From the NCBI RefSeq assembly GCF_000225505.1, contig NZ_BACI01000077.1, positions 1-64,000 on the forward strand: a DNA stretch of 64,000 nucleotides, given 5' to 3'. Position numbers and translations under genes: made by a program. Below the pieces are notes generated by a model. The model was not told the DNA's origin and did no database searches. It was given only the letters and a program-made list of their open reading frames with translations. Shown piece by piece: positions 55,954 through 62,822 of the stretch. The stretch's first letter is position 1. Every line of letters begins with the position of its first letter. Origin of the DNA: Gordonia alkanivorans NBRC 16433. Lineage in GTDB: Bacteria; Actinomycetota; Actinomycetes; Mycobacteriales; Mycobacteriaceae.

Positions 55954-56459
55954 CAGCGGGTGTAGTCGATGAAGCGGTAGGGCGTACCGGTGGTCGAGGT
56001 CCGCCACTCCCCCTTGTCGGCCACCGTCCATTCCGGCCCGATCTCCGGCGCGAACGCGTCGGCTCCGGGGACGTCGACGTCGATCTCGGTGAGGCAGAGT
56101 TCGGTCGCGAACTGCATTGCCGCCCGATAGATCTCGCCACCGCCGATGACACCGACGGTGTCGCCGTCGGCGAGAGCCAACGCCTCCTCGACGGATCGGG
56201 CCACCACCGCACCGTCGGCGGACCAGTCCGGATTGCGTGTCACCACGATGTTGGTGCGGCCCGGCAACGGCCGGAACTTCGGTGGCAGGGAAATCCACGT
56301 CCTGCGGCCCATGACGACCGGGTTGCCGAGGGTCTTCTCCTTGAACCGGGCCATGTCCTCGGGGACGCGCCAGGGGATGGTGTTGTCCCGTCCGATCGCG
56401 GCCCCTTCACCGGTGACCTCGCGGCCCTGCGCCCAGACGAGCCGGACTCGGCGGGTCAC
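55953..56459 (-). CDS. dfrA: Dihydrofolate reductase
   Basis: GTG 56459 gives 168 residues with the substrate-site Asp35 in [13 protein letters not shown], the NADPH loop GRRTWISLP and [12 protein letters not shown]. It regenerates tetrahydrofolate from the dihydrofolate made by ThyA. The start overlaps the thyA stop (GTGTGA), and the stop overlaps the glycosylase ATG. Confidence 0.94.
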
Positions 56460-57289
56460 ACCGCCACCGGCGCCTTGATCCCGGGATGCGACTGGTAGCC
56501 GACGATCTCGATGTCGTCGTACTCGTAGTCGAAGATCGAATCCCGCTTGCGTAGCTCGAGTTTCGGATACGGGTAGGGTTCGCGCGAGAGCTGCAGGTTC
56601 ACCTGGTCGAGGTGGTTGTCGTAGATGTGGCAGTCGCCGCCGGTCCACACGAACTCGCCGACCTCGAGGCCCGCCTGCTGCGCCATCATGTGGGTCAGCA
56701 GCGCGTACGACGCGATGTTGAACGGCACGCCGAGGAACAGGTCGGCCGAGCGCTGGTAGAGCTGGCAGGAGAGCTTGCCGTCGGCGACGTAGAACTGGAA
56801 GAACGCGTGGCAGGGCGGCAGCGCCATCTGCGGGATCTCCCCCACGTTCCACGCCGACACGATGTTGCGTCGTGAATCCGGATTGGTCTTGAGCATCTCG
56901 AGAGCTGCGGAGATCTGGTCGATCTGCTCCCCTGACGGAGTCGGCCAGCTGCGCCACTGGACGCCGTACACCGGTCCGAGCTCACCGTTCGTGTCGGCCC
57001 ACTCGTCCCAGATCGTCACGCCGCGCTCCTGGAGCCAGCGGACGTTGGAGTCGCCGCGCAGAAACCAGAGGAGCTCGTAGATGATCGACTTGAGGTGCAC
57101 CTTCTTGGTGGTGATCAGCGGAAAGCCCTCGGCGAGGTCGTAGCGCAGCTGATGCCCGAAGAGACTTCTTGTGCCCGTGCCGGTGCGATCCGCCTTCGGG
57201 GTGCCCGTCTCGAGCACGAGGCGCAGCAGGTCCTCGTAAGGAGTGGGGATCGTCCCGGTCGATGAGATGTCGCGGATGGCCGTACTCAC
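56456..57289 (-). CDS. thyA: Thymidylate synthase ThyA
   Basis: GTG 57289 gives 277 residues with catalytic Cys in [12 protein letters not shown], the dUMP-phosphate arginine region ([22 protein letters not shown]) and the [10 protein letters not shown] motif. It methylates dUMP and oxidises the folate cofactor. First gene of thyA-dfrA-glycosylase. Frames further upstream run through the divergent HNH gene and are rejected. Confidence 0.95.
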
Positions 57290-57397
57290 GGGTGTCAGTC
57301 TAGGCAAAGCCCCCGACACGTCGCCGCCCGCACGACACGCGGCAACCACCTGCTGTGACTGCAGTGACGCATGTGGCGTCGGGGGTATCCTCCTCCC

Positions 57398-57748
57398 GTG
57401 GCCACTCGCAGCACCACCCGCGCCAACCGCTATGCCAAGCGGCGTCGCAAGCGCGTCGCCTCCCGCGACAACGACCTCACCGACACCCAGTGGCTCGCAC
57501 TCCAGGAGGCCTGGGGTGGGTGCGCGTACTGCGGCGCGGACGGCGTCGCCCTCCAGCGCGACTGCATGCTGGCGATCTCGCGGGGCGGCCGCTACACCGT
57601 GACCAACGTCGTCCCGTGCTGCGGTTCGTGCAATGCCAGCAAGTGCAATTCCGAGGTCACCTCCTGGATGCGCCGCAAGAAGCTCGACGAGAAGGCGTTC
57701 CTGGTGCGGCAGTACGAGGTGAGCAGGCTCCTCGCCGACGTCGAGTAG
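57398..57748 (+). CDS. Small HNH-type endonuclease-like protein with His-to-Cys change
   Basis: GTG 57398 gives 116 residues after a basic leader ([20 protein letters not shown]). Two zinc-type pairs, CAYC and CCGSC, frame the core [31 protein letters not shown]. In HNH nucleases the usual motif before the SRGG turn is DH-V; here the metal-activating His is Cys. It may be a zinc-binding relic, a variant nuclease or a DNA-binding protein. It is divergent from thyA, and a GTTCCGCGGAAC palindrome lies 30 bases after its stop. Confidence 0.75.
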
Positions 57749-57774: not shown

Positions 57775-57792
57775 AGTGTTCCGCGGAACACT
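57775..57792. repeat. Palindrome copy 1 (core GTTCCGCGGAAC)
   Basis: AGTGTTCCGCGGAACACT is an 18-base perfect palindrome between the HNH gene and the Ddn-like gene, ending 44 bases before the latter's ATG. Confidence 0.9.
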
Positions 57793-57836
57793 CGGGAGGC
57801 GCACACTGAGACCATCTGGCGAAGGAGAGTTCGACG

Positions 57837-58286
57837 ATGAGTTTCGAGACCTCGGCGGGTACGCGCGGCGGCCGGGTGCCGAAGGGCCCCTTCATGCGCA
57901 TCGTGAACAAGGTCGTCGCGCCGATGATCCGCCGTAAGGGACAGTTCGGCGGGATGAATGCGCTCGTGCTGACGACCGTCGGCCGCAAGAGCGGTCAGGA
58001 GCGGGCCACCCCGCTCGCCTGGTTCCCGGGCCCCGACGGCAGCTGGCTGATCGTGGCGTCGGCGAACGGAGCCGTGAACAACCCCGGTTGGTACCACAAT
58101 TTGAAAGCGAACCCCGAGAAGGCCCGGATCGAGGTGGGCGGCAAGACCGTCGAGGTCCGCGCCCAGCAGCTCCACGGCGACGAACGCGCCCAGGCCTGGA
58201 ATCAGATCAGCAAGAACGAGCGGTTCGCCGGGTATCAGGAGAAGACCGATCGAGAACTGCCGATCATCAAGCTGACCCCCAGGTAG
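57837..58286 (+). CDS. F420-dependent Ddn/DUF385-type deazaflavin oxidoreductase
   Basis: The 149-residue split-barrel protein has the family signature [21 protein letters not shown] and [38 protein letters not shown]. Relatives in mycobacteria (Ddn and paralogues) use reduced F420 to reduce quinones or nitroimidazoles. GCGAAGGAGAG precedes the ATG. A palindrome copy lies upstream and another directly after the stop. Confidence 0.9.
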
Positions 58287-58287
58287 G

Positions 58288-58301
58288 TGTTCCGCGGAAC
58301 A
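58288..58301. repeat. Palindrome copy 2 (core GTTCCGCGGAAC)
   Basis: TGTTCCGCGGAACA starts two bases after the Ddn-like stop and lies just before the stop of the convergent channel gene, so it may also act as a short hairpin. Confidence 0.9.
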
Positions 58302-58310
58302 TTGCCGCGG

Positions 58311-59180
58311 TCAACGGTCCTCGGGCCTGTCGACCATCGACAGCCGTGTTCCCGGAGTCAACAGGTCATCCACCACCTCGACGACATGTGGTGTCCGAGT
58401 CGCAATTCCCATGAGGCGCCCCGCGGTCGCCGCGGAGACGACGACGGTGTCGGCACCCGATCGGCGCAGCAGCGACACGTTCTGCGCGTCGCGGACCACA
58501 CCCGCGATGTTGGCCCCGGGACTGAGCTGGCGGGCGGTAAGGGTGATGAGGACGGCTGTCGCGTCGCTGTGAACAGCGATGAGGATGGCACGGGCCGCGC
58601 CGGCCTCGGCCAGCTTGAGGACCTCACTCCGTGTGGCGTCTCCACGAACAGCCACCAGGTTGAGCGATTCCGCGGCGTCGAGCGCATTCGGGTCGCTGTC
58701 GACCACCACGAGACTCGCGGTGTCCACGCCGGCGTCGATGAGCGCGCGGGCCGCACTTCGACCTTTGGTGCCGAAGCCGACGATCACGTGATGGTCGCGC
58801 AGGTTGTGCCGCCACCGTTGAATCCGCCACGCCCGACGAGACCGTTCGGTCAGCACCTCGAGAGTCGTCCCGATCAGCACCACCAGGAACAGGACGCGCA
58901 ACGGCGTGACCACGAGAACGTTGACGACTCGAGCTCCCGGGGTCATGGGAGCGATGTCGCCGTAACCTGTGGTCGAGAGCGACACGGTGACGTAGTACAG
59001 ACAGTCCAGGAGTGTGAGTGGAGCATCCAGTGCGTGGCTGTAGGCATCCCGGTCGACGTAGACCACCGCCGTCGCGATCGAGATGACGCCGACGGCGATG
59101 GCGACGCGTATACCGATCGCACGTACTGGATTCTGTGCGCGTTCGGGAACGTTGATCACGCCGAGTCCGGTCTGCTGCAT
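58311..59180 (-). CDS. Two-helix potassium channel with RCK/TrkA-N domain
   Basis: ATG 59180, one base after the nhaA stop, gives 289 residues. Transmembrane helices are at about 21-42 and 84-107, with the selectivity filter TTGYGD at 70-75. The cytoplasmic RCK domain begins near 125 (HHVIVGFGTKGRSAARAL) and binds NAD or ions. ATG 59231, inside nhaA, would add 17 Thr/Ser-rich residues. Transcribed with nhaA, it suggests joint control of Na+, K+ and pH. Confidence 0.88.
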   Translation of the reverse strand: MQQTGLGVINVPERAQNPVRAIGIRVAIAVGVISIATAVVYVDRDAYSHALDAPLTLLDCLYYVTVSLSTTGYGDIAPMTPGARVVNVLVVTPLRVLFLVVLIGTTLEVLTERSRRAWRIQRWRHNLRDHHVIVGFGTKGRSAARALIDAGVDTASLVVVDSDPNALDAAESLNLVAVRGDATRSEVLKLAEAGAARAILIAVHSDATAVLITLTARQLSPGANIAGVVRDAQNVSLLRRSGADTVVVSAATAGRLMGIATRTPHVVEVVDDLLTPGTRLSMVDRPEDR

Positions 59181-59181
59181 G

Positions 59182-60498
59182 TCACTGCTCTCGCTGGTAG
59201 ACGTCGGGTATTCCGTCGTGGTCGTCGTCACGCGACTCTTCGCGAGCGACTGCGCGGTAGTGACGATTTCGTAGGCGAAGGAGAACCGCGGCCGCCGACG
59301 CGGAGATGAGGGAGCCGGCCAGGACCCCGATCTTCACCAGCTCGTCGCGTTCGGTGCCCGATTCGTAGGCGAGGTCACCGATGAGTAGCGACACCGTGAA
59401 TCCGATTCCGGCCAGCATCGCGACGCCGACCACGTCGATCCACCGCACGTCGGCGTCGAGCGATGCGCGGGTGAAGGTGGCCAGCAGGGCGCTGGTGCCG
59501 ACGATCCCCACCACCTTGCCGATGACGAGCCCGAAGACGATGCCGAGCGCGATGGGATCGCCGAGGGCGTCGCGGAGACCGTCGAGCCCGCCGATGGCGA
59601 CGCCTGCGGCGAAGAAGGCGAACACCGGGACCGCGAAACCTGCTGAGAGGGGCCTGATCCGGTGCTCGAACTGTTCGGCGAGACCTGGCTTGGCCGAGTC
59701 GTCGGATATCCGGTGCAGGACCGGGACGGTGAACCCGAGCAACACCCCCGCGACGGTTGCGTGCACTCCTGACTCGTGGACGAACGCCCATGTCAGCACC
59801 GCGAGCGGAAGCAGGATCCACCAGGCGCGTATCCCCCGCTGTACACAGATCGCGAACGCCGCGAGTGGCAGCAGCGCGAGCGCCAGGGCCGAGCCGTTGA
59901 TCGTGTCGCTGTAGAACACCGCGATGACGGTGATCGCGAGCAGGTCGTCGACCACTGCCAGGGTCAGGAGGAAGGTACGCAGCGCCGCGGGCAGGTGTGT
60001 GGAGATCACCGCCAGCACCGCGACCGCGAAGGCGATGTCGGTGGCCGTCGGGATGGCCCACCCCTGTACTGCGCCGTCGCCGGCTCGTGCGGTGAATGCG
60101 ACGAAGATGACGGCCGGTACCGCCATGCCCCCGATGGCGGCGACCACCGGCAGCGCGGCCCGGGCGGGGTCACGCAGGTCGCCGGCGACGAATTCTCGCT
60201 TCAACTCCAGGCCGACGATGAAGAAGAAGATCGCGAGGAGGCCGTCGGCCGCCCAGGTGGCGAGGGTGAGGTCGAGGTGCAGGCCGAGGGCGTCGGTACC
60301 GACTCGAACATCGGCGAGATCGAAGTACGCCGCCGACCATGGGGAGTTCGCCCACGCCAACGCCGCCACGGTGGCAACGAGGAGGAGCATCCCGCCGACG
60401 GTTTCCTTGCGGAGGATGTCGGTGATGCGGGAGGTCTCCGGCCAGGAGCCTCGCGCGAACAGGCGTGGTTTCGGTTCAGGGTGCTGAAGTGAGTGCAT
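59182..60498 (-). CDS. nhaA: Na+/H+ antiporter NhaA with C-terminal Ca-binding-like tail
   Basis: The 438-residue antiporter has about twelve membrane helices, including the Asp pair ([10 protein letters not shown]) and the [14 protein letters not shown] segment. It exchanges Na+ for H+. Beyond the NhaA core the tail reads DDDHDGIPD at 424-432, an exact DxDxDGxxD calcium-binding loop as in EF-hand or thrombospondin type 3 repeats. This is unusual in the family. A channel gene is coupled downstream and a 20-base palindrome lies about 135 bases upstream. Confidence 0.9.
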
Positions 60499-60632
60499 GG
60501 TCGTCCTCAGTGGTGCGGCAACGTACGCGTCGCCGCCGACCGCGGATCACGACCAACGACAAACACGCAGCCGACCAGACTTCCCGGCACTCCGGGAGAA
60601 AGCTTAACAGCGCACCGGACAATCGGCGTCAC

Positions 60633-60652
60633 GAGCGTTCCGCGGAACGCTC
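60633..60652. repeat. Palindrome copy 3 (core GTTCCGCGGAAC)
   Basis: GAGCGTTCCGCGGAACGCTC is a 20-base perfect palindrome between the nhaA promoter region and the 3' end of the DUF222/HNH gene. Arms outside the core differ from the other copies but stay self-complementary. Confidence 0.9.
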
Positions 60653-60677
60653 TGCACTCTGGGCGGGCCGGCCGGAA

Positions 60678-62102
60678 TCAAGCAGCCGCAGGATTGGCCG
60701 TCGACTGGCGCTCCTTCCATTCCCACACCGCGTAGATCACCTCGGTGGCGTACCCGAGATCGAGCTTCCCGCCACCGATCGGCACCGTCGCACCCGCGGC
60801 AATCCGTCCGTCCGGTCGCCATTGTCCGGACGCGCCTGTCGGTGGACTCGACTGAATCACCGAACCATCGGACATATGGAACGAAAACCGTTGCTGCCCA
60901 AGTCCCTTGATCGCAAACTCGCCCCGATGCAATGCTCGATGACACGAGCCGCACAACAGAATCAGGTTGTCCAACTCGGTCTCCCCACCGGCCGACCAGA
61001 ACACCACATGATGCGCATGCAGATGCCGCGTCCGCCCACATCCCGGCGTCTGACAACACCGATCCCGCAGGAACAACGCCCGAATCATCGCCTTGGACGG
61101 AGCCCGCTGCTTGCGCCCCAACCCCAACAACGCCCGCTTCCCCGGACTCCCCGCCACCCGGCGGGACAACGCTTCCCGCAACGACGCACCACACGCCGCT
61201 TCCTCTACCTCGGCCTCCGACAACGCCGGACCGTCATCCAGATGCGCATGCTCCACCCCGTCTCCGACATGGATCAAGATCTCGGCCCCGGGAGCGAGGT
61301 CGGGCATCGCGATTCCCTCATGCACCGCATCGGCCATCGCCACCACCGCCGCAGCAATATTTGACGGTACGTTTCGCCACAGATCCCGACGATTCGCCGG
61401 CTTCACCTCCGAATCCGTCTCCCCGGATTCGGTTTCCAGTTCGCCGGGAGTGTTCCGCGGAACACTCGGCAGGTCCGGATCGCCCATCGTGCGGGCGCGT
61501 TCATACTCCGCGCGCACCGTCCCCGCCAGAAACCGCGCCCCATCAAGAGGCGTCAGTGTCATCGACACCGACAACGATCCATCCGCATTCCACTTCCACC
61601 GAGCCGACGACTCCGCCGGCGGCGTCAACTCCCCACCATCGCTGTAGCCCCGGTCGATCTGCCGCATCGCCCGCACCGCCTTCTCCAGCTGCGACGCCGT
61701 GCACGACAACGCCAGATTCACCAACTCCGGCTCCCGCATCGGCGTGGCCACCCGCGTCAACGCTCGCACCTTGGAATACGTCAGCCGACCTTCGCTGAAG
61801 TGCTGCCGGATCAGCGGGAGCTCGCGCAATGCCTTCGCGACCCGCACCTGTTCGTGCGCCGTCCGCGGCGCAATCCCCGCCTTCCAGGAAAGCCAGTGCG
61901 CCAGTGAGTGAATCCCCGGCCCCCGCCACGACTCCCGCTCATCCAACTCCGCCACCAAATCAAGAAGATCGGCCGTCAACGCTGTGATCTGTGCGGCGTA
62001 ACCGAGCACCCGAACCTCGAGCACCTCGTCCGACAACGACTTCGGATCCGCGCCATCGAACATCGACGACACACCCTCGGCACGTAACGCGGTAACAGAC
62101 AT
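60678..62102 (-). CDS. DUF222/HNH endonuclease (13E12 repeat family)
   Basis: The 474-residue protein has the helical DUF222 domain (about 20-230: LTADLLDLVAELDERESWRG...GIHSLAHWLSWKAGI) and a C-terminal HNH nuclease with CQTPGCGRTRHLHAHHVVFWSAGGETELDNLILLCGSCHRALH, all zinc Cys and catalytic His present. It belongs to the family of the REP13E12 proteins of M. tuberculosis, several of which are LexA-controlled. A LexA-like site lies 18 bases upstream of ATG 62102. One palindrome lies inside the gene (encoding SVPRNT) and one on each side. Confidence 0.88.
   Translation of the reverse strand: MSVTALRAEGVSSMFDGADPKSLSDEVLEVRVLGYAAQITALTADLLDLVAELDERESWRGPGIHSLAHWLSWKAGIAPRTAHEQVRVAKALRELPLIRQHFSEGRLTYSKVRALTRVATPMREPELVNLALSCTASQLEKAVRAMRQIDRGYSDGGELTPPAESSARWKWNADGSLSVSMTLTPLDGARFLAGTVRAEYERARTMGDPDLPSVPRNTPGELETESGETDSEVKPANRRDLWRNVPSNIAAAVVAMADAVHEGIAMPDLAPGAEILIHVGDGVEHAHLDDGPALSEAEVEEAACGASLREALSRRVAGSPGKRALLGLGRKQRAPSKAMIRALFLRDRCCQTPGCGRTRHLHAHHVVFWSAGGETELDNLILLCGSCHRALHRGEFAIKGLGQQRFSFHMSDGSVIQSSPPTGASGQWRPDGRIAAGATVPIGGGKLDLGYATEVIYAVWEWKERQSTANPAAA
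61448..61467. repeat. Palindrome copy 4 (inside the DUF222/HNH gene)
   Basis: GAGTGTTCCGCGGAACACTC is a 20-base perfect palindrome within the coding sequence, in the variable linker between the DUF222 and HNH domains. Confidence 0.9.
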
Positions 62103-62120
62103 CCCGACCCCCCAGCCAGT

Positions 62121-62136
62121 TCGAACAGGTATACGA
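62121..62136. promoter_or_regulatory. LexA-box-like site upstream of the DUF222/HNH gene
   Basis: TCGAAC AGGT ATACGA keeps one perfect half-site with correct N4 spacing and 10 of 12 matches, next to the start codon. Known 13E12 genes of mycobacteria carry SOS boxes. Confidence 0.5.
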
Positions 62137-62184
62137 ACAAGCTATCGCCGGGCACCGACAATTCTGCAGGTCACAGACTCGCAA

Positions 62185-62200
62185 GTGTTCCGCGGAACAC
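62185..62200. repeat. Palindrome copy 5 (core GTTCCGCGGAAC)
   Basis: GTGTTCCGCGGAACAC is a 16-base perfect palindrome between the DUF222/HNH start and the end of the flavoprotein gene. Confidence 0.9.
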
Positions 62201-62278: not shown

Positions 62279-62743
62279 CTAGCCCATGAGCTGCGCCGCA
62301 ACCGTCGCGCCCAACTCCCAGCACGCTTCGCGGTCGACTTTGGTCGGCTTCTCCGAAACCACCACGTACTCAGCGGATTTCACCCAGCCGAGGCCGGTGG
62401 TGATGGAGGTGAGGGCCTTCTCCGCGCCCTCGGTTCCCTGGTTGCCGTGGAAGTACGCACCGAACGGGCGACCCTGCGTCGAGTCGAGGATCTGGTAGTA
62501 GCTGACGTCGAAGGCGTGTTTCAGTGCGCCACTGATGTATCCGAGGTTGGCGGGGGTGCCGAGGATGTAACCGTCGGCCTCCAGGAAGTCGCTCGCGGTC
62601 ACCGCCAGCGCGGCTCGACGGACCACCTCGACGCCTTCTATCTCCGGGTCCGTCGCACCGGAGATGACGGCCTCGAACATCTCCTGGCAGTGGGGCGACG
62701 GCGTGTGGTGAACGATCAGGAGTCGCTTGGCATCGTCGGACAT
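62279..62743 (-). CDS. Flavodoxin-like NAD(P)H-dependent FMN reductase family protein
   Basis: ATG 62743 (GTG 62746 also possible) follows GGGGAGG and gives 154 residues. The flavodoxin fold shows LLIVHHTPSPHCQEMFEAVISGA as the phosphate loop, ADGYILGTPANLGYISGALKHAFD and YFHGNQGTEGAEKAL, all FMN-contact regions. The reaction partner is unknown; roles in quinone or flavin reduction are possible. Confidence 0.85.
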   Translation of the reverse strand: MSDDAKRLLIVHHTPSPHCQEMFEAVISGATDPEIEGVEVVRRAALAVTASDFLEADGYILGTPANLGYISGALKHAFDVSYYQILDSTQGRPFGAYFHGNQGTEGAEKALTSITTGLGWVKSAEYVVVSEKPTKVDREACWELGATVAAQLMG

Positions 62744-62822
62744 CACGACCTCCCCGCGAACGCCAGCAACCTATCAGCCGCGTTCGCACCCTCGAGCAGA
62801 ACCATCTGGCCCTCCCGGGTCC

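What the first reader, a model, noticed from the sequence alone, without database searches (positions are those of the whole stretch)
57775..62200. Five copies of a GTTCCGCGGAAC palindrome confined to one 4.4 kb block
Perfect palindromes of 14 to 20 bases sharing this 12-base core occur at 57775, 58288, 60633, 61448 and 62185; I saw no other exact copy in the remaining ~60 kb, where chance at this base composition predicts far fewer than one. The arms differ between copies (AGTG/CACT, GAGC/GCTC, GAGTG/CACTC) yet stay self-complementary, so symmetry itself seems selected. Copies sit before the Ddn-like gene, after it, before nhaA, inside the DUF222/HNH gene and before it, between two HNH-type genes. 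Ideas: operator of a dimeric regulator for the ddn, nhaA and HNH promoters; target or immunity site of the HNH protein; or a small mobile palindromic element. Known actinobacterial LexA (GAAC-N4-GTTC) and parS sites have different symmetry or sequence.
Basis: partly seen in the sequence, partly recalled or inferred. Interest (0 to 1): 0.78.

Follow-up and report, generated by a model that had tools for sequence, protein, structure and literature searches.

The report
Palindrome read by parS-like HNH nuclease
A short DNA palindrome brackets and punctuates an HNH nuclease gene with a DNA-damage-type promoter in Gordonia and its relatives, and the evidence suggests that the nuclease reads it with a chromosome-partition-like (ParB/Noc) head and that gene and sites form a small mobile unit, which would give a testable function to a very common gene family of unknown role.

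Summary
The five GTTCCGCGGAAC palindromes are real (shuffle expectation 0.01). They belong to the DUF222/HNH gene at 60678-62102, not to ddn or nhaA. In the genus (Gordonia, from named matches), 37 of 39 rows of this DUF222/HNH subfamily carry the word: 67-111 nt upstream in 28, inside the gene in 28, 1-5 nt after the stop in 12. Of 59 genomes, the 35 with the subfamily hold a median of 7 sites, the 24 without hold 1. The five lowest of the 35 carry variant words around their gene. Among non-Gordonia homologues of the class, 15 of 27 examined have TTCCGCGGAA nearby (shuffles 0.025); 0 of 20 other Gordonia DUF222 loci do. The predicted N-terminal domain folds like the parS/NBS-reading domain of ParB/Noc, and two residues of its putative recognition helix track the site sequence. 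In 64 of 102 comparisons of copies at different loci, homology starts at the upstream palindrome; all end near the stop codon; eight genomes lack the unit at one locus. Best reading: a ParB-like-HTH + HNH nuclease with its own parS-like site and a damage-type promoter, forming a REPtron-like mobile unit. Binding is strongly inferred; cleavage and movement mechanism are untested.

The parts
62185..62200 (.). upstream palindrome GTGTTCCGCGGAACAC (16 bp), core 84 nt before the DUF222/HNH start; left end of the conserved unit
62139..62160 (-). promoter-like TGTCGGTG-N8-TAGCTT, matches the RecA-independent (P1/PafBC) DNA-damage promoter consensus
   Evidence: consensus quoted from PMC5656591
60678..62102 (-). 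DUF222/HNH gene (474 aa): residues 35-152 predicted ParB/Noc-like DNA-reading domain, residues 333-418 HNH nuclease domain
61448..61467 (.). in-gene palindrome GAGTGTTCCGCGGAACACTC (20 bp) in the linker, core read in frame as VPRN; exact in 19 of 20 close-clade rows
60633..60652 (.). downstream palindrome GAGCGTTCCGCGGAACGCTC (20 bp), core 29 nt after the DUF222 stop
58288..58301 (.). palindrome (14 bp), core 2 nt after the stop of the Ddn-like gene; copy away from DUF222, shared with G017
57775..57792 (.). palindrome AGTGTTCCGCGGAACACT (18 bp) between the small HNH gene and the Ddn-like gene; copy away from DUF222, shared with G017 and G018

Best explanation
GTTCCGCGGAAC (full form GAGYGTTCCGCGGAACRCTC) is the DNA site of the protein made by the DUF222/HNH gene that it brackets. 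The DUF222 part is a ParB/Noc-type helix-turn-helix domain that binds the palindrome as a dimer (strongly inferred); the HNH part cuts or nicks DNA at or near it (inferred from the intact HNH motif only). Gene plus upstream site, damage-type promoter and, in some copies, a site right after the stop form a unit of about 1.5 kb that is found at several loci and is absent from the same locus in relatives (seen); how it moves is not seen. Cutting at the site, followed by copying or fold-back repair, would spread the unit, scatter lone palindromes and regenerate symmetric arms (inferred). Binding upstream of the promoter would also let the protein limit its own expression (inferred). It works like a REPtron (transposase gene flanked by its cognate palindromes) but with unrelated protein parts.
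Confidence: 0.7

Rival explanations
1. Autoregulation only: the palindromes are operators of the DUF222/HNH protein, which represses or tunes its own damage-type promoter, and the in-gene and downstream copies are auxiliary operators; the gene spreads by ordinary horizontal transfer and recombination, not by its own action at the site.
For: Upstream site in 28 of 39 rows and a P1/PafBC-type promoter in 30 of 38; ParB/Noc-like head.
Against: Distance from site to promoter changes from about 20 to 40 and 66 nt between clades, unusual for an operator; sites also sit right after the stop, after other genes and in arrays; the homology boundary of the unit coincides with the site in 64 of 102 pairs.
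Confidence: 0.2
2. Defence: the protein restricts incoming DNA bearing the palindrome, and the chromosomal copies are protected or incidental.
For: HNH domain resembles those of the modification-dependent enzymes EcoKMcrA and TagI; three sites lie in what reads like a type I restriction locus in G021 (L218).
Against: Hosts carry more sites than genomes lacking the gene, the reverse of the avoidance expected for a restriction target; only 3 stretches of the viral collection hold the 16-bp form; no methylase among the seven neighbours scanned.
Confidence: 0.07
3. RNA or terminator element: the palindromes are hairpin terminators or REP-like RNA structures near gene ends, unrelated to the DUF222/HNH protein.
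For: Many sites lie just after stop codons; the five folded strands give -10.4 to -16.9 kcal/mol.
Against: Hairpins are unremarkable (z -0.8 to -2.6) and no U-run follows in the window sequence; the in-gene copy is kept within a variable coding linker; presence tracks one protein subfamily and its helix residues.
Confidence: 0.03

Closest known systems
RAYT/REP (REPtron): REP-associated tyrosine transposase flanked by its cognate extragenic palindromes (PMC2817692, abstract and section 7 read)
   Same: Gene with its own palindromes beside it; gene presence correlates with palindrome abundance; palindrome and protein co-vary; flanking palindromes change between orthologues but stay palindromic; protein less conserved than its neighbours (DUF222 83% against thymidylate synthase 97% between G000 and G018).
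   Different: No match to a tyrosine transposase; ParB-like head plus HNH nuclease instead; 0-31 cores per genome rather than over 100; palindromes also lie inside the gene, and both flanks have one in only 11 of 39 rows.
ParB/parS and Noc/NBS (passages of PMC7383237)
   Same: Predicted DNA-reading domain fold; palindromic site; Arg at the helix start goes with G at the first base of the half-site GTTCCG, as ParB R173 with guanine 1 of parS. (The parS and NBS sequences themselves are recalled.)
   Different: No ParB-CTPase domain detected, HNH nuclease instead; sites are scattered and beside its own gene. ParB-CTPase-HNH fusions are in print (PMC12704722, passages) but involve another domain of ParB.
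REP13E12 / DUF222-HNH repeats of Mycobacterium (PMC10589994, PMC13061034, passages)
   Same: Same domain names (HNH, DUF222), multi-copy; gene-conversion hotspots.
   Different: No site or mechanism in the passages seen, one of which says the regions lack defined biological function; I did not examine mycobacterial copies.
Free-standing HNH homing endonuclease genes (recalled)
   Same: Selfish nuclease gene with sporadic distribution.
   Different: Here the presumed site is kept beside and inside the gene's own copy instead of being destroyed by insertion.

Membership tests
DUF222 (PF02720) with HNH (PF01844) | matches both models above the curated cut-offs | tested here: met
   DUF222 41.6 bits (cut-off 24.4), HNH 42.4 (21.4)
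RAYT/REPtron | gene always flanked by two palindromes of its cognate type | tested here: inconclusive
   upstream site in 28, after the stop in 14, both in 11 of 39 rows
RAYT/REPtron | Y1/HUH tyrosine transposase of the IS200/IS605 type | tested here: not met
   the window protein matches only DUF222 and HNH models
RAYT/REPtron | abundance of palindromes tracks presence of the gene | tested here: met
   median 7 against 1; weaker beyond the gene itself
ParB/Noc | HTH DNA-reading domain fold | tested here: met
ParB/Noc | ParB-CTPase N-terminal domain | tested here: inconclusive
   no Pfam match; model residues 175-332 are low confidence
ParB/Noc | binding to a palindromic site | not testable with these tools
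   inferred from covariation
PafBC (P1) regulon | tTGTCRgtg-8 nt-TAnnnT upstream | tested here: met
   30 of 38 upstream regions by a pattern close to it; expression not tested
Homing endonuclease gene | insertion disrupts the recognition site, which the empty allele keeps | tested here: not met
   sites beside and inside the gene; eight loci without the unit lack the word. The FMN-reductase locus of G012 does keep a word without the gene

The most novel reading that the evidence does not exclude
A new class of selfish site-marked nuclease: a parS-type reading head fused to an HNH nuclease, induced by DNA damage, that cuts at its own palindrome to move its gene and to seed and re-symmetrise palindromes by fold-back repair, so that part of the DUF222/HNH family across Actinomycetes are sequence-specific mobile elements with readable, evolving target codes.
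Probability: 0.4. Interest if true: 0.88.

Novelty: new variant of a known kind. Interest (0 to 1): 0.78.

Why it matters
DUF222/HNH genes are common in Actinomycetes (57 of 59 Gordonia genomes match) and the REP13E12 repeats of mycobacteria belong to them, yet no function was given in the papers I saw. A cognate DNA site, a predicted reading head and a two-residue recognition pattern make the function directly testable. If right, it is a second, unrelated solution to the gene-beside-its-palindromes design known from RAYT/REP, built from a chromosome-partition DNA reader and a nuclease.

Tried and rejected
Rejected: link to the small HNH gene (present without sites in other genomes); link to ddn or nhaA; a cassette model in which palindromes bound TrkA-nhaA (of the loci compared only G000 and G017 show it; G065 has nhaA beside DUF222 without an exact site between); GTTCAGCTGAAC as the variant site (0-2 per genome in 59; the variant word is GTTCCGCTGAAC). 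A note of mine that one flank was swapped at the element in L191/L193/L199/L202 was wrong: one search shows extra stretches of 0.3-3 kb beside the unit instead. Many 16-mer matches outside Actinomycetes (Brucella, Rhizobium, Firmicutes) look like chance coding matches in transporter permeases (by my reading of the letters, not a call of its own). Sequence searches of the PDB gave at E below 0.1 only HNH relatives; plasmids gave one homologue covering 92% of the query and phages none over 80%. Rows dropped before counts: L269, L270 (Gordonia); L200 (gap at the helix) from the helix counts and from the tree. L149 and L199 are the same gene and both stand among the 39 rows; 9 of the 39 rows were added by me, the other 30 came from the tool. 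The 27 non-Gordonia loci are those for which one search gave loci, out of 51 non-Gordonia matches listed. L268 probably repeats L114, which was picked by the 16-mer, and alignment A1 holds three non-Gordonia proteins picked that way; without L268 the count is 14 of 26. In one search the five variant rows were set to 'no TTCCGCGGAA' by hand; one search confirms it. The genomes whose sites I listed and fetched in detail were mostly those with high counts.
Full report
OBSERVATION. The word GTTCCGCGGAAC occurs five times in the window, all within 57778-62198; 100 dinucleotide-preserving shuffles give a mean of 0.01 and never more than 1. With two mismatches allowed there are 11 in all against 6.8 expected, so the rest of the window holds no excess. 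Perfect palindromes are 18, 14, 20, 20 and 16 bp. The genome (5.07 Mb, 131 contigs) has nine copies, the reversed control none.

WHAT IT BELONGS TO. Genes around it: thymidylate synthase 56456-57259(-), a small HNH gene 57371-57748(+), a Ddn-like F420 reductase 57837-58286(+), TrkA-type channel 58311-59231(-), nhaA 59182-60498(-), DUF222/HNH 60678-62102(-), FMN reductase 62279-62746(-). Named matches show the genus is Gordonia: G. amicalis and G. paraffinivorans carry the same locus. In the relatives compared the sites stay with the DUF222/HNH gene, not with ddn, nhaA or the small HNH gene.

POSITION. A search of 59 genomes of the genus separates a DUF222/HNH subfamily (full-length matches at 48-100% identity) from the many other DUF222 genes (E 7e-19 or weaker). 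In 39 rows (38 genes) of the subfamily, 37 have the core: 67-111 nt before the start in 28, in the gene in 28, 1-5 nt after the stop in 12 and 28-29 nt after it in 2; upstream and downstream together in 11. In the close clade the in-gene copy sits at nt 609-651 in frame and is exact in 19 of 20 rows; the twentieth, L200, has it too, but its gene is broken near the start. Bases beyond the arms are far less conserved (mean 0.57-0.62), although the rows were picked for an exact core. Four other members have two in-gene copies exactly 349 nt apart, in other frames (L165, L170, L171, L173).

CO-OCCURRENCE. 35 genomes with the subfamily (E below 1e-25, fragments such as those of G025 and G027 included) have a median of 7 cores, 24 without it a median of 1 (Mann-Whitney p 7.6e-9; at least four cores in 30/35 against 4/24; species are related, so p is indicative). 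Subtracting three cores per gene copy still leaves a median of 3 against 1 (p 0.013; 0.0006 without the five variant genomes), so lone sites exist but are a modest excess, and 10 of 35 genomes have none left. Four genomes without the subfamily hold 4-5 cores (G010, G034, G063, G007), unexplained; G007 has a weak partial match.

VARIANT SITES. The five subfamily genomes with 1-2 cores are G024, G070, G079, G009 and G016. Around their gene lie GTTCCGCTGAAC or GTTCAGCGGAAC (its complement): 91-149 nt before the aligned start in G016, G070 and G079, 108 nt in G024, and in G009 only 1.1 kb away upstream; and beside the gene end in all five (in G024 as GTTCAACTGAAC), 4 nt past the stop in G016, G024 and G009; G070 and G079 have damaged reading frames there. 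GTTCCGCTGAAC occurs 6-13 times in these genomes and 0-6 (median 1) in the other 54.

BEYOND THE GENUS. A search of 394 genomes of the class found close homologues in 35, three of them Gordonia. I examined the 27 non-Gordonia loci that the tool gave, of 51 non-Gordonia matches listed. 15 have exact TTCCGCGGAA within 400 nt upstream to 250 nt downstream (expected 0.025 from mononucleotide shuffles). The outer bases differ by lineage and mostly symmetrically: GTTCCGCGGAAC, CGGTTCCGCGGAACCG, ACGCTTCCGCGGAAGCGT (L275, L277), AACGTTTCCGCGGAAACGTT (L293). None of 20 other DUF222 loci from Gordonia (4 kb each) has TTCCGCGGAA.

UNIT AND MOVEMENT. Blastn among 18 copies gives 102 pairs at different loci: homology begins at -91 to -116, where the upstream core lies, in 64; inside the gene in 33; between -90 and -1 in 4; at -144 in one. 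All 102 end within -40 to +45 of the gene end. At the locus next to fpg (gene named by my reading of its zinc-finger end), four genomes carry the unit at full length (G017, G021, G002, G030); in G018 it reaches a contig end. Eight others do not: six have only 52-249 bp between the conserved flanks, two (G000 and G073) have 4.1 and 4.9 kb of DNA that I did not examine, and none of the eight stretches has the core. The left junction is the palindrome, close to the fpg stop; the right one is about 10-15 nt past the DUF222 stop (by eye). In G030 the left arm has grown into a 44-bp perfect palindrome that runs through the end of fpg, as fold-back copying would do (inference). At the FMN-reductase locus G012 keeps a core about 18 bp after that gene without DUF222. 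I saw no target duplication in the one locus aligned.

REGULATION. 30 of 38 upstream regions match TGTCRG-N2-N(7-9)-TAnnnT, close to the RecA-independent DNA-damage promoter (P1) tied to PafBC (consensus in passages of PMC5656591). In the window it is at 62139-62160 on the minus strand. In Mycobacterium tuberculosis five putative HNH endonucleases are switched on by mitomycin C, but in a RecA-dependent fashion (passage of PMC8151990), which does not speak for PafBC; I did not identify which genes.

INTERPRETATION. Shown: the site-gene association, its specificity within DUF222, site-protein covariation, the boundary of the unit in most comparisons and loci without it. Inferred: binding by the DUF222 domain, cutting by HNH, mobility through the site, self-regulation. 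Autoregulation without mobility is the main rival. The nearest known design is RAYT/REP (PMC2817692, abstract and section 7); the catalytic part is different and flanking on both sides is not regular, so this is not filed as a RAYT. ParB-CTPase-HNH fusions have been reported (passages of PMC12704722) but involve a different ParB domain.

IN PRINT. Searches for DUF222 + HNH + palindrom, DUF222 alone (15 papers, some probably holding longer numbers such as DUF2220), 13E12 + HNH endonuclease + repeat, REP13E12 + tuberculosis, the 12-mer itself (one unrelated paper) and HNH endonuclease + palindromic repeat + Gordonia listed no title or abstract describing this pairing; I opened passages of only two of those papers. 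Subscription papers are mostly not covered.

Noticed in passing
L206:4117-4619 (G003 C127): Array of 13 exact or one-mismatch palindromes in about 500 bp, part of it a regular 27-bp tandem repeat, with no DUF222 hit in the 9 kb fetched; a similar cluster lies upstream of DUF222 in L207.
   Followed up: partly
L218 (G021 C34:4396800-4404400): Three palindromes lie in what reads like a type I restriction-modification locus (genes named by my reading of the ORFs), one in the end of the methylase-like gene.
   Followed up: no
L219 and L222 (G021): Two loci share about 420 bp at 83% identity around a 20-24-bp palindrome, each after an oxidoreductase-like gene: a larger dispersed repeat carrying the site.
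   Followed up: no
L202:5439-5482 and L208:7073-7112: Perfect palindromes of 44 and 40 bp built on the same core; the 44-bp one runs into the neighbouring coding end, suggesting fold-back copying.
   Followed up: partly
L034-L141 (Frankia, Protofrankia, Parafrankia, Ornithinimicrobium): The 16-bp form recurs on several contigs of single genomes in these genera, mostly without a subfamily DUF222 gene in the stretch: scattered sites there too.
   Followed up: partly
window 57371-57748: A small phage-type HNH gene (best PHROG 2214, E 2.5e-14) stands next to thymidylate synthase in many of the Gordonia loci compared, with or without palindromes.
   Followed up: partly
L200 (G017) and L196 (G018): Broken copies of the DUF222/HNH gene (split reading frames) that keep palindromes; described only.
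   Followed up: no
L260 and L264: At the fpg-side locus G000 and G073 hold 4.1 and 4.9 kb of other DNA, not examined, so this spot may be an insertion hotspot.
   Followed up: no
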